64,000 nt of DNA from an uncultured Alistipes sp. GTDB lineage: Bacteria; Bacteroidota; Bacteroidia; Bacteroidales; Rikenellaceae. The notes under the pieces are model-generated. The model saw only the letters and a program-made list of their open reading frames with translations, was not told the origin of the DNA and searched no databases. A program made the position numbers and the translations under genes. Positions 12,906 through 30,626 of this stretch are shown here, piece after piece (position 1 is the first letter of the stretch; every line of letters begins with the position of its first letter). Location of the stretch: positions 45,029 through 109,028 of the forward strand of contig CASDSD010000039.1 of assembly GCA_949283205.1 (NCBI GenBank), read 5' to 3'.

Positions 12906-12921
12906 AAGGTCGGTATTTGTA

Positions 12922-12999: not shown

Positions 13000-13030
13000 T
13001 TTGCAGCACCGGAAATAATGCGTATCTTTG
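13000..13030 (+). promoter_or_regulatory. Bacteroidetes-type promoter for rarA
   Basis: TTTG at 13000-13003, a 19-base gap, then TATCTTTG at 13023-13030. This is a full match to the phylum's consensus, about 68 bases ahead of the rarA start. Confidence 0.8.
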
Positions 13031-13097
13031 CCTTCGCACCGCTGCGGGCCGCCACCGGAGGATTACGGCCGACGGCTGGCGCTGAAACAGTTTGGTT

Positions 13098-14378: not shown

Positions 14379-14448
14379 GGGCCCGTTGCGCGGGGCGGTA
14401 CGCATTTTGCTCGTTTTATCCACGTTAAAAAGAAATCTTACATTCACC

Positions 14449-15390
14449 ATGAAAAGGAGTATATTATTGATTTTATCGCTGTTGGCGGCCCTTCATGCGA
14501 TGGCGGCAACCGCCGGCAGGCAGACGCTTCTGTATGCCGTCAAGGGCGCCGACTCGCTCTACCTGGACCACTATGCGGCCGACGTCGAGGGACAGCGTCC
14601 CTGCATGATCTTCGTCTTCGGCGGAGGCTTCGTCGGCGGCGTGCGCGACAATGCGGAATACATCCCTTATTTCGAGTTCCTGAATGAACACGGCTACGAT
14701 GTGGTGTCGATCGACTACCGTCTGGGGCTCAAGGGTATCGACGGCTCGAAGGAGCTGTCGGTGCGCGAGATGGTGGGGCTGTTCGACAATGCCGTCACGA
14801 TGGCCGTGGAGGATCTCTTCAGCGCCACGCTCTTCGTCCTGGACAAGGCCGACGAGTGGGAGATAGACCCGCACATGATCGTCTCGTGCGGCTCTTCGGC
14901 AGGCGCCATCACGGTGCTGCAGGCCGAGAACGCCCTATGCAACCGCAGCAGGACGGCCGCCGTCATGCCCGAGGAGTTCGATTATGCGGGTGTGGTATCC
15001 TTTGCCGGTGCGGTCTTCTCGGTTAAGGGGGCGCCCGAGTGGGGACGCAAGCCCGCGCCCGTGATGATGTTCCACGGCAATGCCGACAATCAGGTGCCCT
15101 TCGAGAAGGCATCGCTCTTCGGTGTGGGATTCTACGGCTCGAAGTTCCTCGTAAAGCAGTTCGACAAGGAGGTGTGGCCCTACTGGTTCTATACGGTCGA
15201 GTACCAGAACCACTCTATGGCCGTGACGCCCATGCGCGACAACCGTTACGAGATACTGTCGTTTCTCGAGCGCATGGTGCGCGAGCGGCGTCCTATGCGT
15301 GTGACGACAGAGGTGCGCGACGGCGATTTCCCGCCCTGCAAGACGAAATTCAAGGTTATGGATTACATACGCTCCAACTACTCGGAGTGA
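14449..15390 (+). CDS. exported alpha/beta-hydrolase (esterase/lipase-like)
   Basis: A 313-residue protein with a clear Sec signal peptide (MKRSILLILSLLAAL then ...MAAT). It has an alpha/beta-hydrolase core: the oxyanion-hole strand MIFVFGGGFVGG near residue 50, the nucleophile elbow SCGSSAGA near residue 146 (catalytic Ser in GSSAG), HGNADNQVPF carrying the probable Asp, and a late NHSM histidine. The fold is that of carboxylesterases and peptidases of the BD-FAE/LipA-like kind. The substrate is unknown. It starts 70 bases after rarA and ends 37 bases before the phosphoesterase gene, so the three may share transcripts. Confidence 0.82.
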   Translation: MKRSILLILSLLAALHAMAATAGRQTLLYAVKGADSLYLDHYAADVEGQRPCMIFVFGGGFVGGVRDNAEYIPYFEFLNEHGYDVVSIDYRLGLKGIDGSKELSVREMVGLFDNAVTMAVEDLFSATLFVLDKADEWEIDPHMIVSCGSSAGAITVLQAENALCNRSRTAAVMPEEFDYAGVVSFAGAVFSVKGAPEWGRKPAPVMMFHGNADNQVPFEKASLFGVGFYGSKFLVKQFDKEVWPYWFYTVEYQNHSMAVTPMRDNRYEILSFLERMVRERRPMRVTTEVRDGDFPPCKTKFKVMDYIRSNYSE

Positions 15391-15427
15391 CGCGAAACGT
15401 CCCGATAACCTGCGAAAACCCGGACTT

Positions 15428-15925
15428 ATGAAACGCATAGGAGTAATATCCGACACGCACGGCACCTTCGACGACGTGTTGAAACACTTTCTGGAGGATG
15501 TCGACGAAATATGGCATGCGGGCGACTTCGGCTCGATAGAGACTGCCGACGCCATCGCGGCCTTCAAGCCCCTGCACGGGGTCTATGGCAACATAGACGG
15601 CGGCACGACGCGCCGCGTCTACCACAGCTCGGCATTCTTCGAGTGCGAGAGCAAACGGGTTCTGATAACCCATATCGGAGGCTATCCGCGCCACTACTCT
15701 CCGCCTGCGATGCAGCTGATACAGGGCGCGCAGCCCGACATCTTCGTGGCGGGGCACTCGCATATACTCAAGGTGATGTTCGATCCCGTGTACCGGCTGT
15801 TATACATCAACCCCGGGGCTGCGGGCGAGTACGGATTCCACAAGGTGCGCACGGCGGTTCGTTTCACCATCGACGGCGATGACATGCGTGACATGGAGAT
15901 AGGCGAGTGGCCGCGCCGCGGGTAG
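15428..15925 (+). CDS. metallophosphoesterase, YfcE/MJ0936 family
   Basis: Small cytoplasmic dinuclear-metal phosphodiesterase. All calcineurin-fold motifs are present in 165 residues: GVISDTHGTFDD (D9, H11), HAGDFGS (D33), GNIDG (N55), THIGGYP (histidine ligand) and AGHSHILK. This group hydrolyses phosphodiester bonds in vitro; the physiological substrate is usually unknown. It is followed by a strong terminator and has no signal peptide. Confidence 0.92.
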   Translation: MKRIGVISDTHGTFDDVLKHFLEDVDEIWHAGDFGSIETADAIAAFKPLHGVYGNIDGGTTRRVYHSSAFFECESKRVLITHIGGYPRHYSPPAMQLIQGAQPDIFVAGHSHILKVMFDPVYRLLYINPGAAGEYGFHKVRTAVRFTIDGDDMRDMEIGEWPRRG

Positions 15926-15954
15926 TGTGTCGCTGCCTGCTGCAGGATATGACA

Positions 15955-15988
15955 AACGGGTGCGATCCCTTGGAGGATCGCACCCGTT
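15955..15988. terminator. terminator between convergent genes
   Basis: A perfect 14-bp stem (AACGGGTGCGATCC / GGATCGCACCCGTT) with a 6-base loop, followed by CGTTTTGCG on the plus strand. It lies between the plus-strand phosphoesterase and the minus-strand transglutaminase-like gene and can serve the former. Confidence 0.88.
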
Positions 15989-16010
15989 CGTTTTGCGTCG
16001 TGTGACGAGG

Positions 16011-17618
16011 TTATTTTACTATTAGCTCGCCGTATGCTCGGTCGGCAAGGGCCGTAAGCAGGGCGCGTGCCGACTTCCACTCTGCGGGCGGGACGATCGC
16101 CTTGTTGATCCTCACGTTGCGCGTGACGGTGGCCTTGCCGCCCTCGACCTCTATGCGGAGCGTCACTTCGCCAACCGAGTTGGAGATCTTCAGCTCACGG
16201 TTCGGCGTAAGGATGCGGCCGTCGGTCTCGACGGTGAAGCGTACCTCGTCGTCGCATACGAAGGGCATCTCGAAATATTGCGTGCGCTCCGTCCCCGGAC
16301 GCGACATTCCCCACGACTCGGCAAACCCTGTGGCGGGCAGTTTCACCAGACGGTATCCCGAGCGGTCGGCAACGCTGACGGCAGGTGTCTGCTCCGTCTT
16401 CGAGGTTACGCCGCTGCGGACGGTTTCGACTTCGGTCGTGGCGGCGGCTTCCGTCCCCTTGACCGTGATATTTACCGCAGCCCTGCAACTGTTGCCGCAG
16501 GGGGCGAAGCCGATCTTCTCGCCGCTTGTTACCGAGTATGCCTCGTCGCGGTCGCTGCGCAGCTGCAGGTCGACGGGAGAGCCTGTCGAGGTGTAGTATT
16601 CGTCTTTGCCGTCGATTGCGACCCGTACCGCGAAACTCTTGATGTCGCGCAGCATCTTCACGGCGTGGCAGGCGGGATATACCGCCACCGGCTCGGCGTC
16701 GATGCCCTCGGCCGCGAGCATGCGGGCCAGAAGCGTGCATTTCTCGAGTTCGGTGCCGTAGGCCGATGACAGCACCTCTCTTGCCGTGCGGCTGCGGTAG
16801 CCTGCCATATGGGGCGTTACGCCGCATGAGCCGAGATTCGACGTCATATAGTCACAATATGCTTTTACGGTCCCGGCCTTTGAGTCGCGCGCAAGTCCCG
16901 GTATGCGTACTATGTCGCGTTCCGAGCGGGCGATGCGGCTAAGGGCGTCGGCCGTCGAGGCGAATGTCGTGGCGCAGAGTATGGGGCGTCCTTCGCCGTT
17001 CTGCGGCATGTTGCCCTCATCGTAGTATGCGGCGAGGTTGCGGAACTGCCACGTATAGGTGTCGCCCGTGCGGCGGGGCTTCATGGCGGGGTCGTAACGC
17101 AGCTCGGTGCCTGCGGGTACGGTGATCTCGATACGGCGCTCCTTTACCGAGGCGGCAGGCTCGGTGAGCATCTCGCACACCTCCAGTGCAGGGTAGAAGC
17201 CCGCCTTCGTCGAGAGCGTGTAGTCGAGGTGTATCGTGGCGCCGATCTCCAGCCCCGTATGGGTTATGACCGCCTCGAGCAGGCGGTTGTATGCCGGGGC
17301 ATCGGCCGCGGCGCTGGGCAGCGATTTGTTGACGGCGTTGCCGGGCAACTCTATTACGGTGCCGTCGGCCTGTGTCGTGTAGGCCTCGTTTATGGTCAGG
17401 GTCTGGTATTCGGGGTCATAGACGACGAACGTCTCGCCGAAGAGGTCGTTGAACGAGGTGTGGGTCTCGAGTTTCAGGTCCATCACGCGGCGGTACTGCT
17501 GCGAGCCGTCGGCCGCGAGCGTGTAGCAGGTGTGGAGTTTGTCGTATGTGGCCTCGTCGCCGGCGTATGCCGCCGTGAAGGCCAGAAGGCACAATATGGT
17601 TGCTATGTATCGTTTCAT
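16011..17618 (-). CDS. DUF3857/transglutaminase-like exported protein, apparently catalytically dead paralogue
   Basis: A 535-residue protein with signal peptide MKRYIATILCLLAFTAAYAG, a DUF3857-like beta domain (about 30-230) and a transglutaminase-like region (about 240-355). Aligned with the upstream paralogue, the catalytic segment reads AYGTELEKCTLLARM where that protein has RCGVCKDKAALLISM. The catalytic Cys position is therefore Glu290 and the CKDK motif is lost. The expected His and Asp segments (HFNHCVA, LDPTW) are also absent, replaced by SFAVRVA and STGSPVD. I infer a non-enzymatic role, perhaps binding or pairing with its neighbour. It lies 6 bases downstream of that gene in the same operon. 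Confidence 0.85.
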   Translation of the reverse strand: MKRYIATILCLLAFTAAYAGDEATYDKLHTCYTLAADGSQQYRRVMDLKLETHTSFNDLFGETFVVYDPEYQTLTINEAYTTQADGTVIELPGNAVNKSLPSAAADAPAYNRLLEAVITHTGLEIGATIHLDYTLSTKAGFYPALEVCEMLTEPAASVKERRIEITVPAGTELRYDPAMKPRRTGDTYTWQFRNLAAYYDEGNMPQNGEGRPILCATTFASTADALSRIARSERDIVRIPGLARDSKAGTVKAYCDYMTSNLGSCGVTPHMAGYRSRTAREVLSSAYGTELEKCTLLARMLAAEGIDAEPVAVYPACHAVKMLRDIKSFAVRVAIDGKDEYYTSTGSPVDLQLRSDRDEAYSVTSGEKIGFAPCGNSCRAAVNITVKGTEAAATTEVETVRSGVTSKTEQTPAVSVADRSGYRLVKLPATGFAESWGMSRPGTERTQYFEMPFVCDDEVRFTVETDGRILTPNRELKISNSVGEVTLRIEVEGGKATVTRNVRINKAIVPPAEWKSARALLTALADRAYGELIVK

Positions 17619-17624
17619 CTTGCT

Positions 17625-19580
17625 CTATCTCTTTTCGAATACCAAATCCTTTATTGCGTTGAATCCCATGACCGACTCGCGGAACTGGGTCCAGTCGGCG
17701 GCATCATATACACGTTTTCCGAGCGATATGCGCTGCTGCAGGTGCAGCGTCGCGCCCGATTGCGAACAGCTGCCTTCGTAATTGACAACGTCGCCGCCCG
17801 CCTCGGCCCCGTACGGCTCGCCGGCAAGGGCGTAGCCCTCGGGCAGCGTTATCTGTTCGTCAAGCTCCACAAGGCGCGAGGTCGAATCCTTGAAGGCGTA
17901 GCGTCGCGTCTCGGGTGAGAGATCGAGTCGCAGGAACGAATATATCGAGTTGTAGAGTCCGGTCTTCACTATGGGGCGGCAGATCATGACGCCGTCACCT
18001 ACAGCCGCATAGTCGGGGATCTCGAAGCGTACGGTTATCGAGAGGGGCCCCTGCTGGTAGTCGGCGGGATTTTTCCCCGCATCGTACGACAGGAGGCGCG
18101 CCTGCGGCGATATGTTCAGCAGCTCGCGTTCTATCGCGGCGCGTACGCGGGCACGCATGCCCGTGGTGAAGGGACGGCGTGCCGAGGCGTCCGACAGCCC
18201 CTCGGCCTCGACAACGAAACTGCCCGTAAGTTTGCCGCGGGCATCGAGCCGCGACGTGGCCCTTATGCGGAAGTAGTGGTTCTCCGGGGCCGAGAGGGGC
18301 GTAAGGCAGAGGTCCGACCCCTCGGGTATGCCGGGCAGGTAGTTCTGCTGCTGCTCGGCGCTGCTCCACAGCTCGCGGCTGAAGGGCACCCACGTCGGGT
18401 CGAGCGGCATGTATGTGCCGTCGTCGAGCTTCACGACAGCCACGCAGTGGTTGAAGTGGTCGGCGGGGATCGCCTCGATGCGCGAGCCGGCCATGGTCAT
18501 GGCAGGGTAGGCCTCGAAACCCGCCATGCGGAGCATCGAGATGAGCAGCGCCGCCTTGTCCTTGCAGACGCCGCAGCGGTCTGTGAAGTTGGTGCGGGTG
18601 TTGTGCAGCGTGTAACCCTCGCCCTCGCCCATCGAGATGCCCGAATAACGCATGTTGTCGGCCACCCAGTGTGTCAGCACGGCGATCTTGCGCATAGGGT
18701 CGTCGATGCCGCGTATCAGCTCGTCTACCTTGGCCTGCGCCTCGGGTGTGGGGTCGAAGCTGCCGTAGTCCTCGTTCACGCCGTGGAACCAGAGCGACTT
18801 GTCGCGCCACGAGTCGGTCGACGAGAGCATCAGCTTCGGCGCCACGTCGTAGAGGTCGACCATGTTCGATTCCGAGATGAAGGGCATCGCATCCTCTACC
18901 GTGAACGACAGTATCTGCCTTCCGTCGGCAAAGCGTACCGAGGGGGAACATGTTCCCTGATAGAACTCATACTGTACGCGCTTGCCCTGCGGGACGGATA
19001 CCGTATAGTTCTTGAGCATCGTAGGCATCGATACCCAGAATGGCACGATATCGTAGAAGTGCCCCCGCATGGGTGGGATGAAACGCTCGTCGTCGGCCGG
19101 CATGCCGCCGTCGAGCAGGGCGTATGTGAAACCGTGCTTCTCGATGGTGTAGTCGATGACGTCGCCGACCTCGAGGGCTCCGATCTCGATCATGATCTGG
19201 CGTGCGCCCCAATATATGGCGCGTGCAGGGGCGGCGTAGTCCAATGTGTTCCCGAGGGGTATTTCGTCGATGCGGCCGTCGGCGCGGTACACCTTCACGG
19301 AGGTGAAGCGTGCCGATGCCGTGAGCGGATCGTAGTCGTATTTCAGCACGCGGTTCGTCCGCGCCGCCTCCGTCTTGTTTATGAGTATGACGCGATGGAT
19401 GTCGAAGGCTCCCGATCCGGTCTCGGCGATCTCGACGTTCGTACGGTCGAGGAGGCATATGGCGGGAGCCGACATGAGCGTCGTGTTTGCCTCGGCCCGC
19501 GCCTTGAGCGGGAGCCACTCCTGCGCCGATGCGGCGTACCACAAGGGCAGGAGCAGGATAAACAACAGTAGTCTCTTCAT
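17625..19580 (-). CDS. DUF3857 domain protein with active-type transglutaminase domain
   Basis: A 651-residue exported protein (signal peptide MKRLLLFILLLPLWYAASAQ). An N-terminal DUF3857 beta domain (about 40-230) is followed by a papain-like transglutaminase core with its complete triad: Cys339 in RCGVCKDKAALL, His378 in HFNHCVAVV and Asp394 in PLDPTW. A C-terminal beta-rich DUF2569/DUF3858-like part completes it. Such proteins are abundant in Bacteroidetes periplasms; their substrates are mostly unknown. It has a clear upstream promoter and leads the two-gene operon with the inactive paralogue. Confidence 0.88.
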   Translation of the reverse strand: MKRLLLFILLLPLWYAASAQEWLPLKARAEANTTLMSAPAICLLDRTNVEIAETGSGAFDIHRVILINKTEAARTNRVLKYDYDPLTASARFTSVKVYRADGRIDEIPLGNTLDYAAPARAIYWGARQIMIEIGALEVGDVIDYTIEKHGFTYALLDGGMPADDERFIPPMRGHFYDIVPFWVSMPTMLKNYTVSVPQGKRVQYEFYQGTCSPSVRFADGRQILSFTVEDAMPFISESNMVDLYDVAPKLMLSSTDSWRDKSLWFHGVNEDYGSFDPTPEAQAKVDELIRGIDDPMRKIAVLTHWVADNMRYSGISMGEGEGYTLHNTRTNFTDRCGVCKDKAALLISMLRMAGFEAYPAMTMAGSRIEAIPADHFNHCVAVVKLDDGTYMPLDPTWVPFSRELWSSAEQQQNYLPGIPEGSDLCLTPLSAPENHYFRIRATSRLDARGKLTGSFVVEAEGLSDASARRPFTTGMRARVRAAIERELLNISPQARLLSYDAGKNPADYQQGPLSITVRFEIPDYAAVGDGVMICRPIVKTGLYNSIYSFLRLDLSPETRRYAFKDSTSRLVELDEQITLPEGYALAGEPYGAEAGGDVVNYEGSCSQSGATLHLQQRISLGKRVYDAADWTQFRESVMGFNAIKDLVFEKR

Positions 19581-19645
19581 ATATCCGATTGTTTTAGTTG
19601 TTAATCGTCATCATTAGGCAGCGCCGTCCGGTGCCGTCAACCATG

Positions 19646-19677
19646 CAAAGGTAGTGAAAGGAGAGGGCAGAGCCAAA
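19646..19677 (-). promoter_or_regulatory. Bacteroidetes-type promoter for the DUF3857 operon
   Basis: On the minus strand TTTG (19674-19677), a 20-base gap, then TACCTTTG (19646-19653). Both elements match the consensus and lie 66 bases upstream of the start codon at 19580. Confidence 0.8.
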
Positions 19678-19698
19678 TCGAAATGGCCAGTTTCCCTG

Positions 19699-19714
19699 TT
19701 TCGACATGTCGAAA
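19699..19714. promoter_or_regulatory. 16-bp perfect palindrome, possible operator
   Basis: TTTCGACATGTCGAAA reads the same on both strands. Its right half (CATGTCGAAA) is repeated directly at 19725-19734. It lies 22 bases upstream of the -33 element of the DUF3857 promoter, a position suited to a dimeric regulator. The regulator is not identified. Confidence 0.45.
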
Positions 19715-20408
19715 CGCCTTCGGCCATGTCGAAAGATGGTGGGAAGGTGTATACAGGAGCAAAATATGGCATCATGAATCAAGTCGTAGCAGCCTTGGAA
19801 ATGCTGGTCTAAATGTGACCTTCATGTTATTAGGGTGTTATTTCCGTAGGCGTTTGACCGCTCCGTTCAAGTCCCAAACACAGTTTCCGAGAACTTCTTT
19901 AACCTTCAGCTGTCGGGCGTTCAAAGAAGTATTCAAACATCTGTATACCGCTATTTGAATGGCCCGCCGCATCGATCGCCCAAAATCAGGCTTCACACAT
20001 TTGCAGGAAGCACTAGGAAGGACAACCATGCAGGACTGTGTGTTGTCGGCACGCTTAAATGCACAATAATGGATAGAAAGTTTTTTATTTTGACACAATT
20101 TTGTATATTTATAATCAAATCTCAAAATAACTGAACCTTGATGCATGCAATGATCCCCAACGTACTTACGTGAATTTCAAAATAAGAGCAATAAGGCGAC
20201 AAAGCAGCCTTGTTTCCATAAGATTCCTTTCGGTACTTTCAATTCTTGGGTAAATGATGTAAACAATATATGGATCACATCATGTCAACGTCAAAAAAGG
20301 AATCGTTGCCTTGCGCATCATTACGAACAGTCCGAATAGAAAAGAGATATGTGGCACTACTTCAAAGATATAGAAAAAGGTATTAATTAAATAATCAATA
20401 TTGCAATC

Positions 20409-21155
20409 ATGGATAAATTAATAAAAATCAGGATATACAAGCTGTTTATAGCTTCATCGATGCAAAACTCGTGTCGCGAGTTGGTCTGTGATATAATCAA
20501 AAAAGTAAATACGAAACTTGAACTTCATGATATTAAGTTTGACTTAATAGAATATGGAGAAACTCCTATCGTCGATCACGGGCCCGACACACAACAAATA
20601 TTAAATGAGAAGGCTGCTACATCCGATTTGTTAATAGTCTTGGCTGAGAATAATATCCCGATTGGCAAATATACTTATGGGGAGTATCAGGCAGCTTATA
20701 AACAGTCGTTAAACAATCCCGACAACCACCCATACATAAAGGTATTTTCTCTATGCAATCAGAGTAATGAACATATAAAGTTGGCCTACATCGCAGAGGA
20801 TGGTACATGTCGTAACTTTGAAACGAAATTGTATGATGATTCCAAACGTTATCCTCAATATATATTGAGAACAAAATTCAATGAGTTTTTTGAGGAATGG
20901 CTTACAAAGATTGCCTTGTATGGATTTGAGCATAATTTAACCCAGGATGAACTGGCCTATGGAGATCATCTTCATAAAATTGGTCAAGGCGGAATACGAC
21001 AGAACAATAAAAAGTATTACAAACGAGACAACCTTGATGGACAAATAGAGAACATATTTAAAACTTCACCAATTGTAATACTTGAAGGTAATACTTATAG
21101 TGGTAAGACACGTGCGGCTTTTGAGTTTCTGAAAAGGTGCAAGGAGTGGAAGTAA
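20409..21155 (+). CDS. N-terminal fragment: DUF4062/TIR-like domain plus Walker A
   Basis: The 248-residue product that would be made if the TAA is real. It begins at the ATG at 20409, contains the sensor/effector-like domain and ends 14 residues after the P-loop GNTYSGKT. It therefore lacks Walker B and all of the C-terminal part. Such a fragment could not be a working NTPase. By itself it would be an isolated DUF4062/TIR-like domain. Confidence 0.6.
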   Translation: MDKLIKIRIYKLFIASSMQNSCRELVCDIIKKVNTKLELHDIKFDLIEYGETPIVDHGPDTQQILNEKAATSDLLIVLAENNIPIGKYTYGEYQAAYKQSLNNPDNHPYIKVFSLCNQSNEHIKLAYIAEDGTCRNFETKLYDDSKRYPQYILRTKFNEFFEEWLTKIALYGFEHNLTQDELAYGDHLHKIGQGGIRQNNKKYYKRDNLDGQIENIFKTSPIVILEGNTYSGKTRAAFEFLKRCKEWK

Positions 21156-24100
21156 TATGATTTCAATATATATGCCAATCGTAATTACATAAAAGATTTA
21201 CTCGAAATTTACAATATAGATTACTCGGGGGCCAATCGCGGAAATGTCTTTTTTTTCGATGATATCAACGATATCCTCAATAAAGAAGACGAAAAGATTG
21301 ATCGTAATCAACCTCTGTGGAGCAAACTCAACGGATACAACGAATTGAACGGGTTTAATATTAAAGATTTTGGCAAAACAAGAATTATATTCACTATATC
21401 AGGAAAATTATCGACTTCTCAAAAAAATAAAATATATGAACAAATTTTCAATAATCCTAGTGCAGATCTACACTCTAGCCTAAAAAAAATAATAGTAAAC
21501 TTTGATGTTTATGATCAATATTCTTTCCGTCAGATGGTAAATGCCATGCAACGTGAAGGAATGATTGATAGGGCTAGTATTAGTCCTGGGAATTACACAA
21601 TTGGATCGCTTTTTATTCGAACGGAAGAGATCAGGAAAGAAGCGATGGAACAATATGAGCAAAACAGTGCTCTTATGATAGCACTTGTCGGCCATTTCAA
21701 ATATACCTCTACAAAATCTCGATTCACGGGGTTGATAGAAGAAATACAGGAACTGTATGATTTTATACGAAGTACGAAATCGTATGCGCATACGTATTCG
21801 GAAAAACTCGAGGATGGGATTGAAGGATTACGCCAAAAGGGACTTCTCGTTACATCAACAAATGAGTATGACACATTACGGAAAATATATATTGATAAAT
21901 ATATCCTTGACATTTTCAATGAAGTAGTCTCAAATAAGATTAAGTATGAAAAAACGAAAGGCATTTATGCGCTTAATAAATTACTCATAGACTACGCGAT
22001 GGAATGCCAAAGAGAGGAGAGAAGAAGTTTGGCAAGTCATCACATATGCTACGTTACACAGATGGCGTATCTTATTGTTGACCGAAATCAACCTGCCGAT
22101 GAGGAAATAATTGATCTAATAGAGATGTTAGCATCAACCCTGCTGTCTGTAAATAGGAAAAGAAATAAAGAAAATGCAAATGCTGTTATTATAATGAATT
22201 TAGTGGACATAGCTTCAATCCCAGGACGTTATTCTATGAATTTCGCATCATCTGCGATTGCTAAAATTAACGATTTTGAGATGGTCAATGATCTGCTGGA
22301 TACATGTTATGATTATTACCAGTATTGCATGGAGAATAACAAAGATAATAGTAATATAATCATAGATTTTTACAAACGAGCTGTTTATTCGATGCTTTCG
22401 ACGGGGAATCGAATAATGACCATGGAGCAAGAACGACGAATTTTAGATCGTATTTTTGACAATGGGGAAGAGTGGAAATTCCCATTTGAAGACAGTGACC
22501 TTCAAAATGTTTTCAACCTTGCGCGTCTGTCCAAATATACGAAAAAAATGGATGCTCAGCAAATAATAGAACTACTGCCGAATGCCACCCTCAAAGGCTT
22601 GAAGCTATTAGATGATAATGAAGAGCCTGAGACAAATAACAGTAAAAAACAAGCAGACAAATATAAATATTTTGTTGATATCGTATCTTCATCGTCAATT
22701 GAAGATGAAAATAGTGACGAAGAAGAACAAAGTGGGCTCTATGAGAACATCTTTCTGAAACAGCTTGACAATACAGCCATTAATGCTATACGTCGCATAC
22801 GTAGTTTTGATGAGTTTATTAAGGTCATCGAAAGTCTTCGGGCAATGTGCATTAAATCCATACATGTTAAACTTGCAATTGAACGAACCTTTACTCGAGA
22901 CTTTTATAAAATAGTCCCCGAAATAGTCAGAACTATGAATTATATCGACAGAAATGAGTTTTTCAAATTCATTTTATGTATTGATGACAACAAGGGGATG
23001 TTGGGTAACGGCTCAATAAAGTCGGAATATGTAGAACTACATCGTGCATCCCGTATTCATTTGTTAAATCAAATTTTAATATATCTTGACGAGAATGCCG
23101 CATTAGAAGGTTACGAGGAGATGGTTGATAACAAACTTTGTGACATGGAGACGTTATCACACCTTTTAAAAAATGAATTCTTGAATTTTGAGCAACTTGT
23201 ACGTCTAATAGGCAAAGACGACGGGCAAACTAACTTCATAACTTTAAATCAACTTCTGGGCAAGGCCGAAACGTTGTCAGATGCAAATGTATGCCTGCGC
23301 CTAATGGGAATTATGAGTTGTGACCCGTGTAAAATACGTGATGAAAGTGCACTTGTAAAATATCTTCAGATAAAGTATATAGGTCAACATCAATGTATTG
23401 AGATTATTAAGGGAAGGCGCCAGTTATACCCTGACGCTCTTTCGGATACTACTATAACAGCTGTTCTGTCAAAATTAAATCTTGAACAACTTATTGATAT
23501 CTTTTTCCCGTCAGAGAAAAACATTGGTCAGGGCTATTATTTTGAACACTATGGATTTCTTGATAAAGAAATCGAGAGAATGCGTAAAAATGCCATACAT
23601 CTCAACATGTTATTTTCCGGAGCAAATAACGGTGGCAATGAAGTCGCACAACTCATAAGCGCGAAATTTGAAGAGATAATTCAAGACCCCAAATTACAAT
23701 TATTGATTACCGATCCAGACTGTAATGGGAAAAATGGTATTCTATCTGTATACATGAAGAATAGACACTTGTTCCCTGATTACGAGAGTGTCAGGCGTTT
23801 CTATGACAACTTATCAAATGAATGTAAGCCTGAGATGGTAGATCATTATATTTACAGTGTTTTTTTATGGAATATCATAGATGCATATAAAAGAAATATA
23901 TATGACAGAACTAAAGCCATAAAATTGCTTAACAGTGAATTAATTAGTGCATATGCAATATTTGCAAAACTATATACGAAAGACAAGGTAATATATATGA
24001 TGGCAAACCTTTATCGTTATCGGCCACTCCTTACGGATGAATTTAGTTTCAATAACGTTGAAGAGTATGCATACGAGAACAGAATATTGAAAACAAGCTA

Positions 24101-25706
24101 TGTAGATTATCTTGAATATCTTATAAAAAACAATACCGCTTTTGTGGATGGTACTTTCATATATAATGCATTGATAATGATGCAAAAACAAATAAATGAT
24201 GAGGTGTATGATAAACTTGCCATATTAGCGTCATTGAATCATGTAGGAGTGAAATACGATACTATTCTTAGAACTAACAAGAATTCACCTGTGTTATCAC
24301 AAAAAATGCAGCAAAGGTTATTCAATTACGACGTGGAATCAAACACGCTCTATATTGATAAAGATCTAGTACATAATGTTTCATATATTAAGGTGTTGTG
24401 TTTTTTATTGTATAACGAACTGATGACTCTCGATAATGCGGAGAAATATCGTATGCAAAACAAGATACCGATTACTGAAACTTACCTCAACTTAGCTCTT
24501 AAATGCATGTCTCAGAACATTATAAAAAGTTGGAGATTATCAGGGCACGACAACGATGTCCTTAAAAATGGATATGATCAAATGTGGGAATATATCAATA
24601 ACATATTTCCCGAAACTTCGTATATTCATAAAAGTGTGCAAATGTGCCTATCTCTTATTGCCGTCACACCTAATGAAGAATCATTGAATCATATTTTTTT
24701 AGACAATGAATTTGCCGAGTTGAAAAATAAGACAGAAGTAATTGCAGCTCGCATGAAAGAAACGCTTCGGTTGCGGCACAATAGCAGCAAGGCTGATCTT
24801 ACATTATCTGAATTTAAAGATCTGATTGTCGAAAACTGTCGCAATGTTAATATTTGGATTATAAATATTTACCTCAGCACATTTGTCAAAATAGCCAAAC
24901 ATGAATTGACTTATGTGGATAATAGCAATATTGGTGATACTCCATTTGATCGCTGTTGGCCTCTTCTAAAAGAAAAGAGCAAGATAGATGTATTTGAGCT
25001 TCTTAAGCTTGATGAAAAAACAAAAATAGACATTATTGAACAGATGGAGCTCCAGGAAAACAAGTGGCTCATAGAGGCAAATGTTCAGACGTTCTCGTAT
25101 TTTGTTCAAACTACACCGAATCTCATAAGTACTATGGATACTTTGTTCAATGGTGATTTTACATATGATGATTCAGGTAAAAAGAACTGCTTGAAGGATG
25201 CATTAAAAAACTATGCTTTTACGTATGAAACAGTAAAATTGAAAGATAAAGATTGCGCACGGAAAGAAGTGGAGCATATTTGTCAAATTCTTTTGAGAGA
25301 TAATAATCGCAGAATATTCGAAGAGATCTGTGATGAATACATCATAAGATCAACCCACAAAATAAAGTCGAATAAATGGAAAAGAATGAATGCCTTATGG
25401 GAAGATTTACTCACTTGGCAAGACTTCAGGATTGCAATGGTGCATTATATCTGCAAATCAGAAGTAAAAATGAGTTATAATAAAGGACGAAGGTCAAGTA
25501 AGCTTTTATATTTGGATCGTGGGGATTTTATGCGTGTTCAAATCCTTAAAACCGCACTTTGTATGGACAATTTTGACGACGAACTTAAACATAAAGTTGT
25601 TGATTGTTACAATAAGGTAATCTTTGCGGCAGAAAAAACGGGAGATGAATTTAAATACAAAGATGCAGAACTTATCAAGTCGATATTCTCATTAAATGAA
25701 TGTTGA
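21156..25706 (+). CDS. C-terminal fragment: Walker B and helical sensor region
   Basis: Open without a break for 1,516 codons after the TAA, in the same frame. The first in-frame alternative start is the TTG at 21345, which lies beyond Walker B (21258). Independent translation would therefore lose the NTPase core completely, which argues against a genuine two-gene arrangement. The sequence is Leu/Ile/Asn/Lys-rich and predominantly helical. No catalytic motif is recognised in it. Confidence 0.5.
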   Translation, partial: YDFNIYANRNYIKDLLEIYNIDYSGANRGNVFFFDDINDILNKEDEKIDRNQPLWSKLNGYNELNGFNIKDFGKTRIIFTISGKLSTSQKNKIYEQIFNNPSADLHSSLKKIIVNFDVYDQYSFRQMVNAMQREGMIDRASISPGNYTIGSLFIRTEEIRKEAMEQYEQNSALMIALVGHFKYTSTKSRFTGLIEEIQELYDFIRSTKSYAHTYSEKLEDGIEGLRQKGLLVTSTNEYDTLRKIYIDKYILDIFNEVVSNKIKYEKTKGIYALNKLLIDYAMECQREERRSLASHHICYVTQMAYLIVDRNQPADEEIIDLIEMLASTLLSVNRKRNKENANAVIIMNLVDIASIPGRYSMNFASSAIAKINDFEMVNDLLDTCYDYYQYCMENNKDNSNIIIDFYKRAVYSMLSTGNRIMTMEQERRILDRIFDNGEEWKFPFEDSDLQNVFNLARLSKYTKKMDAQQIIELLPNATLKGLKLLDDNEEPETNNSKKQADKYKYFVDIVSSSSIEDENSDEEEQSGLYENIFLKQLDNTAINAIRRIRSFDEFIKVIESLRAMCIKSIHVKLAIERTFTRDFYKIVPEIVRTMNYIDRNEFFKFILCIDDNKGMLGNGSIKSEYVELHRASRIHLLNQILIYLDENAALEGYEEMVDNKLCDMETLSHLLKNEFLNFEQLVRLIGKDDGQTNFITLNQLLGKAETLSDANVCLRLMGIMSCDPCKIRDESALVKYLQIKYIGQHQCIEIIKGRRQLYPDALSDTTITAVLSKLNLEQLIDIFFPSEKNIGQGYYFEHYGFLDKEIERMRKNAIHLNMLFSGANNGGNEVAQLISAKFEEIIQDPKLQLLITDPDCNGKNGILSVYMKNRHLFPDYESVRRFYDNLSNECKPEMVDHYIYSVFLWNIIDAYKRNIYDRTKAIKLLNSELISAYAIFAKLYTKDKVIYMMANLYRYRPLLTDEFSFNNVEEYAYENRILKTSYVDYLEYLIKNNTAFVDGTFIYNALIMMQKQINDEVYDKLAILASLNHVGVKYDTILRTNKNSPVLSQKMQQRLFNYDVESNTLYIDKDLVHNVSYIKVLCFLLYNELMTLDNAEKYRMQNKIPITETYLNLALKCMSQNIIKSWRLSGHDNDVLKNGYDQMWEYINNIFPETSYIHKSVQMCLSLIAVTPNEESLNHIFLDNEFAELKNKTEVIAARMKETLRLRHNSSKADLTLSEFKDLIVENCRNVNIWIINIYLSTFVKIAKHELTYVDNSNIGDTPFDRCWPLLKEKSKIDVFELLKLDEKTKIDIIEQMELQENKWLIEANVQTFSYFVQTTPNLISTMDTLFNGDFTYDDSGKKNCLKDALKNYAFTYETVKLKDKDCARKEVEHICQILLRDNNRRIFEEICDEYIIRSTHKIKSNKWKRMNALWEDLLTWQDFRIAMVHYICKSEVKMSYNKGRRSSKLLYLDRGDFMRVQILKTALCMDNFDDELKHKVVDCYNKVIFAAEKTGDEFKYKDAELIKSIFSLNEC

Positions 25707-26084
25707 ATTTATTTTAATATTGAGCATATCGGAACATGCCAAATATTTGTTATATGTTATTTCCCGTGGAATACTACCCGTTGTGAGTTGTCAGTTCCGG
25801 TTAGTCTTTGGTGTCGTGCTTAAATAATTTAGATATAAGGGGGGGGCAACACTTTATTGTCTTCCTGTTATATTAGAGGCTGTTTCAAAACAGCCTCTAA
25901 TACTTCAATGAACTTACAATAAAATAAGTCTTTAGTATTTTATATCCTTTAGATACCTTTTTATTGTCCCCTCCCTCTTGGGAGAATGGGATATTTGCCG
26001 GACGGTATGGCGGTTGTTATGGATTGTCCCAAACGGGCGCTACACGATGCGGCGAGGTGTCAGGGATGCCGTCATTGGGTCGGA
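25707..26084. other. intergenic region between the convergent STAND and triple-AAA genes
   Basis: 378 bases with no supportable gene. It holds a G-run (eight G at about 25842-25849) and a strong palindromic hairpin at 25872-25901. G+C rises again to the right of about 25980, where the next gene begins, so the compositional border lies here. Confidence 0.5.
25872..25901. terminator. 14-bp palindromic hairpin after the STAND gene
   Basis: ATTAGAGGCTGTTT and AAACAGCCTCTAAT are exact inverse complements separated by two bases. The position, between two convergent genes, suits a bidirectional terminator, although the U-run is poor. The AGAGGCTGTTTCAAAA core also resembles terminal repeats seen at the ends of some Bacteroidetes insertion sequences, so a relic IS end is an alternative. 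Confidence 0.55.
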
Positions 26085-29000
26085 TTATGGTTTTACATAC
26101 CCGATTCGCCGCGTATCGACCTCTTTCCAGACATAATGTTCCACATCGCACAGCCGCACCGTGCCGTCGCCGTGCGAATCCCCGGTGCTGATGCGCAGCA
26201 GGGCGGTTTCGGCAATCGAACGGGCGAGTTTCGACATGGTCCGCGCATTGGCATAGCCGAGCCGGCGGTTTGCGCAGAGCGAATGGATGTAGTCGGCCAT
26301 ATGCCGGGCCGCCTCGGGCGAGAGCTGGAGCCGCTTGCGCTGCAGGCACTTCCCGAGAATGGCCAGCAGCTCCTCCTCGGTATAGTCCGCAAAGTGCAGC
26401 GTATGGTCGAACGCGGTGATGCCCCCTTCGCGCAGGCTGCGCGTCAGCAGGTGCGGCGTGCCTTCGTTTTCGGCGATGACCAGCGCATAGGTGCCGGGCA
26501 GCTCCATCGTCATCGAACTCAGCTTGAAGCGTAGCACCTCGCTGTTGAAGCGGGAGTCGGGATGCTTGAAGACGGGGGCATCGCCGTCGATGAAGAGCAG
26601 CCCCTGCTCGGAGCGTTTCATCGCCTTTTGCAGCAGCTCCTCGGCCTTGAAGTCCGAAACATTGTACAGCGTCTCGGCCTTGAGTTCCACCAGATGCCCC
26701 TTCCCGAGAAGGTGCATCGCCCGGAGCAGTTCTGCCATGATGCCGGCCACGGTACTCTTTCCTGTACCCGTATTACCCGTAAAGTTCCAGCGCAGGGGTT
26801 CGTTGTCCATCCAGCCTCCGCCCTGCGAGCGCATATAGCGGCTCACATCGACGAAATTGTGGATGCTGCGCTTGACCTCCTCCAGTCCCACAAGGGCATC
26901 GAGCCTCTTCAGTACGCGGCCTACAGCGGCCTCATCGAATCCGACCTTCTGCTCGCGTGCCGCATCGTCCCCCGGTGACGGAATATCCTCCTGGCAGATC
27001 AGGCAGAGACGGTTGCGGTCTTTCTGTTTTGCGGCAGGGAGTGCGGCCAGACGCGAACTCATGGCCGGCAGGATCTGCGACGAGATAAGCCGCGTGATAT
27101 AACGGGCATTCCCCCAGTTCGCATCCTTGCCCGCGAGTTTGGACTCGACCAGTTCACGCAACTTGCGCCGGGCGGCGGGCGAGAAGCGGAACTGCGAGCG
27201 TTCGGCCACCTGGTCGGCTATCTGCATCAGTTCGTCGGCCGTGTAGTCGACGAAATGGAATGTATATGGGATGCGTGAACGCAGTCCGCGGTTGGATGCG
27301 AGCATCTCTTCCATCTCCTCCTTATATCCGGCCATGATGACCAGCATATCGACCGGCTCCTTGTCCAGTGCCGAGAGCAGCACCTCGAGTACCCGCGGGC
27401 CGTAATCCTTCTCGTTGCCTTTGGGTGCCAGCGTGTAGGCCTCGTCGATAAACAGGACGTTGCCTTTGGCCCGATTCAGGATATCCTCTGTGTTTTTCTC
27501 CGTGTCGCCGACGAACTGGCCGACCAGATCCTTCCGCTCGACATAGATCAGATCGCCCTTCGACAGCAGCCCCATCGAGGCGTAGATCTCTCCGATGAAC
27601 GATGCCACGGTGGTCTTGCCCGTGCCCGGATTGCCTGTGAATACCATGTGCAGGGGCGGCATGGCCGTCTCGATGCCCTGCTCGTTGCGCAGCATCATCA
27701 ACTTGACCATGTTCAAATGGGCCTCGATGCTCTTTTTCAATGCTCCGAGTCCCACCATGTCGTAGAGTTTGCGCATGGAGCCTCTATAGTCTTTCACGTG
27801 CGGTGTCGGGATATCCTCCCGCTCGATGGTCAGCATGTCGAACAGCGATACCGGATTGCGGCGGGCAAGGCGTGAGGCCATGGCCGGGAGAATCTCCGTC
27901 TGGAGGAGCGTCGCAATGTAGCGGGCGTTGCCGAACTTCTCGTCCCGCAGCCTATAATCGTGGCGGATCTTCATACGCAACGCCTCGCGTGCATCCTCCG
28001 AAAGAAAGTAGTTGTGCCGGATACAGTACGAGTCGGCGATCTGCATCAGCTCGTCGGCCGTGTAATCCTGAAAGTAATATCTGTTCCGCTCCGGGATACG
28101 TGACGAAAGCCCCTGGTCGATGGAGAACAGGCGTGTGATGCCGTCGGGATATCCTGCCAGCAGCAGCGCCCAGTCGTTCTTTTGTTCGTCACTAAGGGCC
28201 GTGAGCAGAGTCTGTATGACGTTCTTGCCCGGATCGCGAGGGTCGTTCGGGTTGTAGAGGTTGTGGGCCTCGTCGATGAACAACACCCCGCCTTGCGCCT
28301 CCTGAATAGCCTGTAGGGTCAGCTCCTGCTCACTGGAGTAGTTCTGTCCTGTCAGCAGGCTGCGTTCCTTGTAGACGACGTGCCCCGAACTCAGCAATCC
28401 CAATTCTTTGAGCATCGCCCCGTAAAGCCGGGCTACCGTCGTCTTGCCCGTTCCGGGATTGCCCATGAATGCGGCGTGCAGGGATACCGGCGGTACGGAC
28501 AACCCGTTCTGCCGCCGCTGGATGGCCATGCGGATCATGTCCCGATAGGTGGCCATCTGTTCCTTTACCTGCGACAAACCGATCAGGGACTTCAGCATCT
28601 CGAAAGGCTGTTCGGGCATATTGGTAGTTCCCGAACCCTCGGACTTGTAATAGCCATGGACATCCCGTTTCCCGACATGGAATGTGACAGGCGCAATTAG
28701 TTGATCCTTGTATTTTAGCTCAATCACATAATTGCCCTGTGTCCAGCAGAAAGTCTCGTCCTCGTCGAACGAGCAGAGCAAAAACAGCTCCGTTATGTAT
28801 TCATTATGGGTTACGGAGGGAAAGACCTCTTTGTGTACCAGTAAGCGGCCGGTTTCGTCGTAGAGATTGACCGACATCTCTCCATAATGGCACCGGGTCA
28901 ACCTGCTGATGGCTTCAAAAGCAAGACACACCGATTCCAGCCGCCGGACATCGAATGCCCACAGCGACTCCTGCGGAATACCCTCGTCCGAATTCACCGG

Positions 29001-29810
29001 CCCGCGGAACAGGCGTATCGACTTTATTCTCAAATCATCTTTGTTACCAGGTCTGTTGGTTGCATTCTCTTTTTCTCTGTTTTCGACTTCATCGGAGGTC
29101 TCCGAATCGGACAAATTGTCAAACGGGAAGTCGGAATAGGGATCCTCCTTTGAGGAGTCGGAATCCGTGTTAGAGTCAGTATCGGAATCGAAGTCGTTTT
29201 CTGAAAATTGGCACTGTCCCTCCGTGTTAAATACCTTCTTCATCAGTTCCGGGAACGCCTTGTCCAAATCCGATTCTTCGGACTGGATGGAGGCTGCGGC
29301 CGCAGTCTTTACCAACAATCGCTTGTCGTCATCGGACGGCCGGAATATGTCCGAAACCGTCTTGTCGATTTCATGAATAACCGTTATTCCTATTTGCCCC
29401 CATACATCTTCCATCAGTTCATAATTGACGATTGTGTAGTTGCACACAAGTAGCATCTCGATCTCGACGTCGGGATGAAGCAGTGCGAGGACGCATTTTG
29501 CCCGCTGCATATCATAGACCGGAGAGACGCGGTAGTCACTTTGTGAAAAATACAACGGCGGTTCGAGTCCGCAACTCTCTTCATCGGCCAACCAGGACTG
29601 GTCCCCTTTGGATGCATCAAAGAAATCGAACTTGACCAACAGGAACGAATTATCCTTGCCGACATATATGACATCAACCGGTTTCCCGAAAAGAGGAGCC
29701 TTGCGGATGGATTCATTGTTATTGAGTCTGTTCAATGCCTCGGACAGGCTCTTGCTGCTGGTTTGATCCAATTCGGACAAAAAAGTCTTGAAATAATTCG
29801 TATCGCTCAT
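26085..29810 (-). CDS. triple AAA+ ATPase (CbbX/SpoVK-type) with acidic linker
   Basis: A 1,241-residue protein of unknown function. Residues 1-195 are an unrecognised alpha/beta domain. About 203-248 is a Ser/Asp/Glu-rich linker, and 258-390 a beta-rich domain. Three CbbX/EccA-like AAA+ modules follow: Walker A GNPGTGKT (450-457) with FIDEAH; GNPGTGKT (726-733) with FIDEAY and a pore-loop-like GQFVGDTEKNT; and GNTGTGKS (1012-1019) with Walker B FIDGD, where Gly replaces the catalytic Glu. Related modules remodel Rubisco (CbbX) or assist type VII secretion (EccA). ATG 29810 is chosen over a TTG three codons earlier. A TAACTTTG element lies 29 bases upstream. G+C is like the core genome, unlike the STAND gene beside it. 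Confidence 0.82.
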   Translation of the reverse strand: MSDTNYFKTFLSELDQTSSKSLSEALNRLNNNESIRKAPLFGKPVDVIYVGKDNSFLLVKFDFFDASKGDQSWLADEESCGLEPPLYFSQSDYRVSPVYDMQRAKCVLALLHPDVEIEMLLVCNYTIVNYELMEDVWGQIGITVIHEIDKTVSDIFRPSDDDKRLLVKTAAAASIQSEESDLDKAFPELMKKVFNTEGQCQFSENDFDSDTDSNTDSDSSKEDPYSDFPFDNLSDSETSDEVENREKENATNRPGNKDDLRIKSIRLFRGPVNSDEGIPQESLWAFDVRRLESVCLAFEAISRLTRCHYGEMSVNLYDETGRLLVHKEVFPSVTHNEYITELFLLCSFDEDETFCWTQGNYVIELKYKDQLIAPVTFHVGKRDVHGYYKSEGSGTTNMPEQPFEMLKSLIGLSQVKEQMATYRDMIRMAIQRRQNGLSVPPVSLHAAFMGNPGTGKTTVARLYGAMLKELGLLSSGHVVYKERSLLTGQNYSSEQELTLQAIQEAQGGVLFIDEAHNLYNPNDPRDPGKNVIQTLLTALSDEQKNDWALLLAGYPDGITRLFSIDQGLSSRIPERNRYYFQDYTADELMQIADSYCIRHNYFLSEDAREALRMKIRHDYRLRDEKFGNARYIATLLQTEILPAMASRLARRNPVSLFDMLTIEREDIPTPHVKDYRGSMRKLYDMVGLGALKKSIEAHLNMVKLMMLRNEQGIETAMPPLHMVFTGNPGTGKTTVASFIGEIYASMGLLSKGDLIYVERKDLVGQFVGDTEKNTEDILNRAKGNVLFIDEAYTLAPKGNEKDYGPRVLEVLLSALDKEPVDMLVIMAGYKEEMEEMLASNRGLRSRIPYTFHFVDYTADELMQIADQVAERSQFRFSPAARRKLRELVESKLAGKDANWGNARYITRLISSQILPAMSSRLAALPAAKQKDRNRLCLICQEDIPSPGDDAAREQKVGFDEAAVGRVLKRLDALVGLEEVKRSIHNFVDVSRYMRSQGGGWMDNEPLRWNFTGNTGTGKSTVAGIMAELLRAMHLLGKGHLVELKAETLYNVSDFKAEELLQKAMKRSEQGLLFIDGDAPVFKHPDSRFNSEVLRFKLSSMTMELPGTYALVIAENEGTPHLLTRSLREGGITAFDHTLHFADYTEEELLAILGKCLQRKRLQLSPEAARHMADYIHSLCANRRLGYANARTMSKLARSIAETALLRISTGDSHGDGTVRLCDVEHYVWKEVDTRRIGYVKP

Positions 29811-29838
29811 GGCTGGCAAATGGGTGGTGTGGTTTTTA

Positions 29839-29846
29839 CAAAGTTA
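29839..29846 (-). promoter_or_regulatory. -7 element upstream of the triple AAA+ gene
   Basis: The minus strand reads TAACTTTG, a perfect TAnnTTTG, 29 bases upstream of the start codon at 29810. No strong -33 TTTG is seen at 19-21 bases. Confidence 0.55.
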
Positions 29847-30069
29847 ACAAAAACAGCCTAATTAAATGCAGAAAGCGGCGGTATATGTGGCATTGATGAA
29901 TTAGTAAAGAAAAGCATATGGATCGAAACAGAGATAATTAAAACGCCTTAACTGAAAAAACGATACGGAAAAAGGCGGAAAGATCGAATTGCGCGTATTT
30001 GTGTCGAAATTGTGCACCCGCCAAAAACGAAACAGCCGACTGCATTGCTGCAAGCGGCTGTCTTTCAAG

Positions 30070-30142
30070 TGGTACCAGGAGGAATCGAACCGCCGACACA
30101 AGGATTTTCAGTCCTTTGCTCTACCAACTGAGCTATGGCACC
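30070..30142 (-). tRNA. tRNA-Phe (GAA)
   Basis: The minus strand folds as a complete cloverleaf: acceptor GGTGCCA / TGGTACC with one G-T pair, D-arm GCTC..GAGC, anticodon stem AAGGA/TCCTT with loop CTGAAAA (anticodon GAA), and T-arm GGCGGTTCGATTCCTCC. The CCA end is not encoded. Its 3' end faces the triple-AAA gene and the AT-rich region. Confidence 0.97.
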
Positions 30143-30626
30143 ATCTTCATCGGTCGGTTTTTTTGATCATCCTCCCGCAGCCTTTCGGCCGTCCGGCAGA
30201 TCTTTCCGACCCGTTGCGAGTGCAAAGGTAAACAAAAAATCTCAACATCCAAACGTTTCGGCAATTTTTTCTGTTTTATCTTTACTGCGGGGCATTGAGG
30301 ATCTTCGCTGTCGGCACGTAGCTTGGCAAACACCAAATCAACACACACCTCAAGGGGATACACATGATTGTACAGCAATGTGGCTGCAGCAGACGTACTA
30401 CGATCGAATTCATGAAATATATCGTCACTATGTTGATTCCGGATGCTTTTGCAGTTGGACCGCAACCTGTTCGACTCTTCATGAAAAAGAAATGCCGCGA
30501 AACCGAAAGTTTCGCGGCATCTTTGTAATACCCTTAATAACCCAATGGCCTGTCATGCCATTTTTTCGGAGACATCGTCCTTTCGCCTTCATGACATGGC
30601 TCTGCCGAAACGTTGCCCCGTCGAAG
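30143..30626. other. intergenic region between two tRNA genes
   Basis: 484 bases between tRNA-Phe and tRNA-Ser. I see no supportable ORF; short frames here match no family and lack promoters. The only strong element is the hairpin at 30492-30520. Confidence 0.5.
30492..30520 (-). terminator. terminator downstream of tRNA-Ser
   Basis: A perfect 12-bp stem (ATGCCGCGAAAC / GTTTCGCGGCAT) with a 5-base loop. On the minus strand it is followed by TTCTTTTTCAT, a reasonable U-run. It lies about 105 bases beyond the 3' end of tRNA-Ser. Confidence 0.75.

What the first reader, a model, noticed from the sequence alone, without database searches (positions are those of the whole stretch)
20409..25706. 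Large STAND-type sensor gene split by one TAA exactly between Walker A and Walker B
Seen: one frame of 1,766 codons broken only by TAA at 21153-21155. Walker A (GNTYSGKT) ends 14 codons before it and Walker B (NVFFFDDINDI) is 31 codons after it. The N-terminus looks DUF4062/TIR-like and the rest is helical. Known: STAND proteins of this order include many anti-phage and NLR-like sensors. Inference: this is a recently inactivated, or deliberately switchable, defence gene, since more than 1,500 codons downstream remain open.
Basis: partly seen in the sequence, partly recalled or inferred. Interest (0 to 1): 0.82.

Follow-up and report, generated by a model that had tools for sequence, protein, structure and literature searches.

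The report
Broken TIR-like STAND immune-sensor gene
A bacterium of the same genus as a gut Alistipes carries a very large, apparently imported gene that looks like an immune sensor which would kill its own infected cell, but one stop codon inside its ATP-binding engine has most likely switched it off recently.

Summary
In detail: window 20409-25706 is one frame of 1,766 codons with a single internal TAA at 21153-21155, between Walker A and Walker B. The one full-length relative found, 1,616 aa in an Alistipes MAG, is a single intact gene that aligns through the stop without a gap; a second relative, cut by its contig end, is open across it. The nSTAND3 profile matches across the TAA, below its cut-off. 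The N-terminus is DUF4062-like by profile comparison with shuffle controls; a 2026 preprint reports DUF4062 as a TIR-like NADase domain used in antiphage defence (PMC13174449). The gene lies in a ~10.35-kb stretch between a core gene and tRNA-Phe that two genomes of the genus lack. Best reading: a horizontally acquired TIR-like/STAND sensor, recently inactivated by one nonsense change. A switchable stop is not supported: repeats bracketing it are no better than chance, 40 of 40 tRNA genes found have ordinary anticodons, no unusual fold. Assembly error or strain polymorphism cannot be excluded: no reads are available. Structure prediction failed. Three close members were found, in one genus.

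The parts
20409..21155 (+). 5' fragment, 248 aa plus TAA: DUF4062/TIR-like N-terminal domain, linker, and start of the NTPase domain with Walker A
20409..20905 (+). DUF4062-like (TIR-like) putative effector domain; boundary approximate
   Evidence: hhalign against the N-termini of two DUF4062-TPR proteins: 96.2% probability, E 2.8e-9; 60 column shuffles reach at most 1.41%
20682..20684 (+). codon of Glu92 in the motif IGKYTYGEY; invariant in 3 of 3 family members and aligned with a Glu of the DUF4062-TPR proteins; candidate catalytic Glu (assignment inferred)
21048..21515 (+). nSTAND3-like NTPase domain, profile positions 11-141 of 155, matched across the TAA; 24.2 bits, below the 27.2 cut-off
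   Evidence: G000:C39:66076-66543; hhalign
21087..21110 (+). Walker A, GNTYSGKT
21153..21155 (+). in-frame TAA, codon 249 of the frame
21243..21275 (+). Walker B, NVFFFDDINDI
21156..25706 (+). 3' frame of 1,516 codons: rest of the NTPase and a long C-terminal region (presumed sensor; no family match). First in-frame TTG at 21345, ATG at 21534, GTG at 22203, all after Walker B
25871..25902 (.). perfect 15-bp inverted repeat with a 2-base gap after the gene; possible terminator
19718..30068 (.). ~10.35-kb island between a core gene and tRNA-Phe, absent from two genomes of the genus; no integrase among the proteins scanned and no second copy of the tRNA end
26085..29819 (-). neighbouring gene for a 1,244-aa protein with several AAA ATPase modules, in the same island, different base composition (about 56% G+C for 26014-29853)
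30069..30142 (-). tRNA-Phe (gaa) at the right border of the island

Best explanation
This is a horizontally acquired, single-gene STAND sensor with a DUF4062 (TIR-like) effector domain at its N-terminus, an nSTAND3-like NTPase switch after it and a long C-terminal region that presumably recognises an invader protein. In an intact member, trigger binding would make the NTPase oligomerise and bring the TIR-like domains together to destroy NAD+, killing or stalling the infected cell (inferred from published DUF4062 and Avs5 work, not shown here). In this genome one nonsense codon between Walker A and Walker B ends translation after 248 residues. The product would have the effector domain and the P-loop but neither Walker B nor the sensor, so it should be inert (inferred). 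The undamaged remainder points to a recent loss.
For: Shown: single frame with one TAA; a full-length intact 1,616-aa homologue with 43% (N part) and 33% (C part) identity, collinear through the stop; a second homologue open across the position until its contig ends; nSTAND3 profile spanning the stop, E 3.1e-5; hhalign to three STAND proteins with repeats, 93.2%, E 2.9e-7, and of the N-terminus to two DUF4062-TPR proteins, 96.2%, E 2.8e-9, against 60 column shuffles each that reach at most 0.54% and 1.41%; 3 of 3 members keep the candidate catalytic Glu. Foreign origin: 34.4% G+C against mostly 55-65% elsewhere in the window; two genomes of the genus have the flanks without the island. Recency: no second lesion; 95% bound 1.22% neutral divergence. 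Published: DUF4062 is a TIR-like NADase in antiphage defence (PMC13174449); Avs5 is effector-nSTAND3-repeats (PMC12931631).
Against: No read data, so the stop could be an assembly or base error or a strain polymorphism. Pfam scores are below curated cut-offs (nSTAND3 24.2 against 27.2, where the profile also rings in 14 of 14 control genomes, over the cut-off in 7; the own genome has no DUF4062 match). The proteins used for the two hhalign links had been found by searching with this family, so those links are not independent of it. No PADLOC match for the gene or its homologue. The only neighbour in the island is an AAA gene that hits 12 PADLOC profiles (best IetA, E 5.2e-14), which may be generic AAA likeness. 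No structure model was obtained. Only two other close members were found, one of them cut by its contig end.
Confidence: 0.7

Rival explanations
1. The gene is intact in the organism; the TAA is a metagenome-assembly base error or a strain variant that became the consensus.
For: The genome is an unnamed fragmented assembly of 50 contigs, 92% complete; no reads are available; the rest of the frame is undamaged.
Against: 13 neighbouring genes compared with genomes of the genus (14 aligned stretches, 6,449 residues) show no internal stop in the window. Of the 34 rows of that call I counted these 14; 3 repeat the same genes against another genome, also without stops; I set aside 17 as overlapping antisense or shifted frames by my own judgement, 8 of which hold the 18 stops. 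The TAA is about 43 kb from the nearer contig end.
Confidence: 0.18
2. The two frames are now two working proteins: a free TIR-like domain with a P-loop, and a separate sensor.
For: Both frames are long and open.
Against: The cut is inside one NTPase domain; the full-length homologue is one gene; the first in-frame TTG and ATG after the stop come 63 and 126 codons on, beyond Walker B.
Confidence: 0.05
3. The stop is regulated: it is read through or switched in some cells so that the sensor is made rarely.
For: The remaining 1,516 codons are undamaged, as expected if they are still translated sometimes.
Against: No suppressor anticodon in 40 of 40 tRNA genes found; no unusual RNA fold (z 0.69 and -0.53); repeats bracketing the stop exist but are short, imperfect and no longer than chance; no tandem array; two of two homologues that cover the position lack the stop; TAA ends 9 of 32 chosen genes of the window.
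Confidence: 0.04
4. The gene was not an immune sensor but a STAND-type regulator of some other process.
For: DUF4062 and STAND domains also occur in proteins without known immune function (recalled); no neighbouring gene could be assigned to a defence system.
Against: Rare, patchy, island-borne and of foreign composition, which fits accessory defence genes better.
Confidence: 0.15

Closest known systems
Swarozyc (KpSwz) and DUF4062 proteins, PMC13174449
   Same: N-terminal DUF4062-like domain with an invariant Glu (equivalence to KpSwz Glu97 inferred); accessory, horizontally spread
   Different: Swarozyc pairs DUF4062 with an auxiliary domain that binds the phage portal; here it is fused to an NTPase and a long further region
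AVAST type 5 (Avs5: SIR2, nSTAND3, repeats), PMC12931631
   Same: Order effector, nSTAND3-like NTPase, long C-terminal region; both effectors would act on NAD+ (inferred here)
   Different: The effector is DUF4062-like, not SIR2; the nSTAND3 match is below its cut-off; no TPR or PPR family match in the C-terminal region
Human TEP1, NWD1, NWD2, NPHP3 (DUF4062 next to a NACHT STAND ATPase), as described in PMC13174449
   Same: DUF4062 in the effector position, before a STAND-type NTPase
   Different: nSTAND3-like rather than NACHT; no WD40 domains recognised; bacterial
Bacterial STAND NTPases with N-terminal TIR and other effectors (PMC8195603, 12 passages seen)
   Same: Fusion of a NAD+-directed effector to a STAND NTPase is a known bacterial theme
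   Different: Those passages speak of TIR, not DUF4062; 'DUF4062' does not occur in that text
2,496-aa protein beside the same AAA gene in genome G157 (L100:1708-9198)
   Same: DUF4062 match (E 9.7e-5, 22.9 bits, below cut-off) and a P-loop in the same place; collinear hhalign alignment over residues 6-245, 71.4%, E 3.6e-5, no shuffle control run; one open frame
   Different: Much longer and far diverged; its NTPase matches AAA weakly, not nSTAND3; it lies on the other side of the AAA gene

Membership tests
STAND NTPases | P-loop NTPase with Walker A and hydrophobic Walker B in one domain between effector and sensor regions | tested here: met
   Motifs at 21087-21110 and 21243-21275, conserved in the intact homologue; in this copy the stop lies between them. 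STAND-specific motifs beyond these were not tested
Pfam nSTAND3 (PF20720) | score above the curated cut-off of 27.2 bits | tested here: not met
   24.2 bits for the window gene, 19.0 for the intact homologue, 13.7 for the truncated one; hhalign at 93.2% shows likeness, not membership
Pfam DUF4062 (PF13271) | score above the curated cut-off of 24.7 bits | tested here: not met
   No match for the window N part nor in the own genome, nor for the intact homologue; linked through DUF4062-TPR proteins, one of which scores 20.7 bits (the same gene 23.7 bits)
DUF4062-like domains in the wide sense | detectable homology to DUF4062-bearing N-termini, with the conserved Glu | tested here: met
   hhalign 96.2%, E 2.8e-9 with the Glu aligned, controls. 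The partners are themselves below the Pfam cut-off, and that this Glu is the published catalytic one is inferred: the paper's alignment figure is not held
DUF4062-like domains in the wide sense | TIR-like three-dimensional structure and NADase activity | not tested
   structure jobs failed or did not complete (later tries); activity needs the bench
AVAST type 5 (Avs5) | SIR2-like N-terminal effector | tested here: not met
   No SIR2 match in Pfam, NCBIfam or PADLOC for either half or the homologue; N-terminus is DUF4062-like
Swarozyc | DUF4062 plus the HTH/winged auxiliary portal-binding domain | tested here: inconclusive
   No such domain recognised by Pfam in the homologue, but the published domain was not itself searched with
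Known antiphage systems in PADLOC-DB 2.0.0 | match to a system profile | tested here: not met
   0 families for 3 of 3 proteins (both halves and the homologue) at E up to 1

The most novel reading that the evidence does not exclude
The stop is part of the mechanism: the sensor stays off because its NTPase cannot be completed, and it is finished only in a cell infected by a phage that recodes stop codons and brings its own suppressor tRNA, so that the phage's altered code is itself the trigger. Gut Bacteroidales phages with recoded stops are known (recalled), mostly with TAG or TGA rather than TAA, which counts against it.
Probability: 0.02. Interest if true: 0.92.

Novelty: new variant of a known kind. 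Interest (0 to 1): 0.4.

Why it matters
The stop itself looks like an ordinary recent loss of an accessory gene. The family around it is the more useful result. It joins a DUF4062-like (TIR-like) effector to a STAND switch in one bacterial protein, the order that the human vault protein TEP1 and NWD1, NWD2 and NPHP3 have with a NACHT domain. [quoted passage not shown] Intact bacterial members (the Alistipes RGIG7722 homologue and the giant protein in G157) would be tractable models for that step. The broken copy adds a case of loss of a presumed self-killing defence gene, consistent with a cost of carrying it (inference).

Tried and rejected
Switch by inversion, recombination, tandem repeat or slippage: short imperfect direct and inverted repeats bracket the stop, but the longest exact arm across it is no longer than in resampled sequence; no tandem array; the lesion is an in-frame codon. 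Read-through: no suppressor among the tRNA genes found, no fold signal. Alternative code: TAA is a normal terminator in the window. Two-gene architecture: contradicted by the intact homologue. Classical integrative element at tRNA-Phe: no second copy of the tRNA 3' end in 19000-30200 at up to 3 mismatches in 18, 6 in 25 or 11 in 40, and no integrase family among the island proteins given to Pfam (both halves, the AAA protein and the 102-aa frame at 19838-20146); other small frames were not scanned with Pfam.

Searches that led nowhere: single-sequence scans of genome contigs and viral contigs, alignment scan of viral contigs, plasmids and phages by tblastn, an exact DNA pattern in viral contigs, PDB sequences (profile searches gave best E 0.41 and 0.25, to unrelated proteins), PHROGs (best E 0.092). 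Judged unrelated: the G576 hit, a sensor kinase. Left flank 16011-20000: no match in G157; a longer query (11000-19600) found two stretches of it in G157, window 13106-14368 and 15428-15918, on another contig. So the island site as seen in G137 and G178 was not found in G157, and no tRNA lies in the 13 kb read beside its AAA gene. Paper listings without direct bearing.
Full report
WHAT IS THERE. The other five frames of the stretch carry 80-210 stops, and 2,000 first-order Markov sequences of the same length reach at most 204 stop-free codons. Codon usage before and after the stop is alike (correlation 0.81, third-position G+C 0.36 and 0.33), as for one gene.

ONE GENE, NOT TWO. Among 268 genomes of the family searched with the C-terminal part, 2 match: the own genome and G096. 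Its gene is a single open frame of 1,616 aa, 43% identical to the N part and 33% to the C part, aligned through the stop with no gap. Among 180 genomes of the genus searched with the N part, 9 match at E up to 0.01: the own genome, G061 and G096 strongly (E below 1e-57), and six weakly (E 8.3e-4 to 9.3e-3). The G061 gene runs off its contig end after 277 codons and is open across the stop position. So two of two homologues that cover the position have a sense codon there. With the homologue as query, 3 of 393 genomes of the order match (own and two weak, one of them a sensor kinase); with the profile, 3 of 395 of the phylum sample (own and two weak, both at the NTPase). These samples overlap. 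A scan of genome contigs with the alignment gave one relative, again RGIG7722. The family is therefore rare, and its three close members come from one genus.

DOMAINS. Neither half matches a Pfam, NCBIfam or PADLOC family at E up to 1. Searched in the genome with stops read through, the nSTAND3 profile matches window 21048-21515, profile positions 11-141 of 155, E 3.1e-5, 24.2 bits against a cut-off of 27.2, and the match spans the TAA. It is the third of 13 matches in this genome, and the profile rings in 14 of 14 control genomes, over its cut-off in 7, so this score alone is not proof. The aligned family matches a profile of three proteins with an NTPase and TPR or PPR repeats (A8; their own nSTAND3 scores are 16.9-18.3 bits, also below the cut-off) with 93.2% and E 2.9e-7. 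The N-terminal alignment of three family members matches the N-termini of two DUF4062-TPR proteins with 96.2% and E 2.8e-9, over 139 columns that include the IGKYTxxEY motif. With 60 column shuffles of the second profile in each case, the best probabilities were 0.54% and 1.41%; reversed profiles gave 0.13% and 0.15%. The partner proteins had been found by searching with this family, so they are intermediates, not independent finds. One of the DUF4062-TPR proteins has a sub-threshold DUF4062 match (E 4.7e-4).

CONTEXT. The gene has 34.4% G+C, while most of the window has 55-65%. In G178 the left flank (87% identical, to window 19717) is followed after 343 bases by tRNA-Phe, and in G137 (83%, to 19594) after 1,084 bases, beyond which the right flank continues; in G137 a frame of 205 aa lies in between. 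So 19718-30068, about 10.35 kb, is an island holding this gene and a convergent AAA-ATPase gene of different composition. No second copy of the tRNA end was found. In genome G157 the same AAA gene lies beside polysaccharide genes on one side and, on the other side, an open frame of 2,496 aa with a DUF4062-like N-terminus and a P-loop. That frame was found by the Pfam DUF4062 profile, not by our family, and aligns collinearly with it over the DUF4062 domain and P-loop (71.4%, E 3.6e-5, no shuffle control). In the window the sensor gene is on the opposite side of the AAA gene, G157 shows no tRNA in the 13 kb read there, and the window's left flank lies on another G157 contig. So this is a hint, from two genomes, that such genes travel with the AAA gene, not proof of one shared site.

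HOW IT WOULD WORK. From PMC13174449 (abstract, passages, part 1 of 2 of the Results, and the Discussion seen): DUF4062 is a TIR-like NADase domain; KpSwz needs Glu97 and protects by abortive infection; in TEP1, NWD1, NWD2 and NPHP3 it sits beside a NACHT ATPase. From PMC12931631 (three passages): Avs5 has SIR2, nSTAND3 and repeats. From PMC8195603 (12 passages): bacterial STAND NTPases with TIR and other effectors are known. Our intact homologue has the same order with a DUF4062-like effector. Shown here: sequence relationships, motif conservation, position of the stop, island. Inferred: NADase activity, trigger recognition, oligomerisation, antiphage role.

THE STOP. The 248-aa product would retain the effector domain and Walker A but lose Walker B and everything after it. 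Restart is unlikely to rescue the NTPase: the first in-frame TTG and ATG come 63 and 126 codons downstream, past Walker B. Of all single substitutions in the downstream part 5.26% are nonsense (717 of 13,644), so its being undamaged bounds neutral divergence since the loss at 1.22% (95%; it counts nonsense changes only and assumes no selection). In the neighbourhood 13 genes (14 aligned stretches, 6,449 residues) compared with genomes of the genus show no internal stop; of the 34 rows I set aside 17 as overlapping antisense or shifted frames, and the 18 stops lie in 8 of those. Regulated reading of the stop has no support: 40 of 40 tRNA genes found have ordinary anticodons (the assembly is 92% complete), folds have z 0.69 and -0.53, TAA ends 9 of 32 genes that I picked by hand, and repeats that bracket the stop are no longer than chance gives: longest exact arm 12 bases, reached in 116 of 200 (inverted) and 131 of 200 (direct) resamplings.

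VERDICT. A real, most likely recently broken member of a rare DUF4062-like/STAND family, best read as a horizontally acquired abortive-infection sensor. The break is ordinary. The architecture is a new variant of known kinds: it fails the Avs5 test (no SIR2) and the curated Pfam cut-offs, and works, by inference, like Avs5 with a Swarozyc-type effector. In the listings and the passages read I saw no description of a bacterial DUF4062-nSTAND3 protein; the library lacks most subscription journals, and the preprint's supplementary figures, which show DUF4062 domain combinations, are not held, so this is not a claim of absence.

Noticed in passing
L100:1708-9198 (G157:C1:335707-343197): Open frame of 2,496 aa with a DUF4062-like N-terminus and a P-loop, beside the same AAA gene as in the window; the longest frame of this kind seen here.
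   Followed up: partly
window 26085-29819 (-): 1,244-aa protein with several AAA modules and AAA_lid_6; hits 12 PADLOC profiles, best IetA (E 5.2e-14), perhaps generic AAA likeness. DNA identity to G157 differs along the gene: 91% for 26014-27526, 79% for 27527-29853 (the break falls at my fetch boundary, so its exact place is not known).
   Followed up: no
L090-L099 (ten loci of the genus): 16 of 180 genomes of the genus hold a DUF4062 match over the cut-off; in four of the ten loci read (L093-L096) a P-loop motif follows it in the frame (for L092 my script picked a wrong frame), so DUF4062-NTPase fusions of several kinds recur in this genus.
   Followed up: partly
window 13092-14378 (+): The best nSTAND3-profile match of the genome (28.6 bits, over the cut-off) lies at 13227-13376 on the plus strand, opposite a 507-aa minus-strand frame (12927-14450) without Pfam match at E up to 1e-5. 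DNA of 13106-14368 is widely conserved in the genus, so the real gene is probably the 428-aa plus-strand frame, a conserved P-loop protein.
   Followed up: partly
L074:4984-5601 (G137): At the island site of a related genome a different frame of 205 aa lies between the core gene and tRNA-Phe, a sign of repeated exchange at this site.
   Followed up: no
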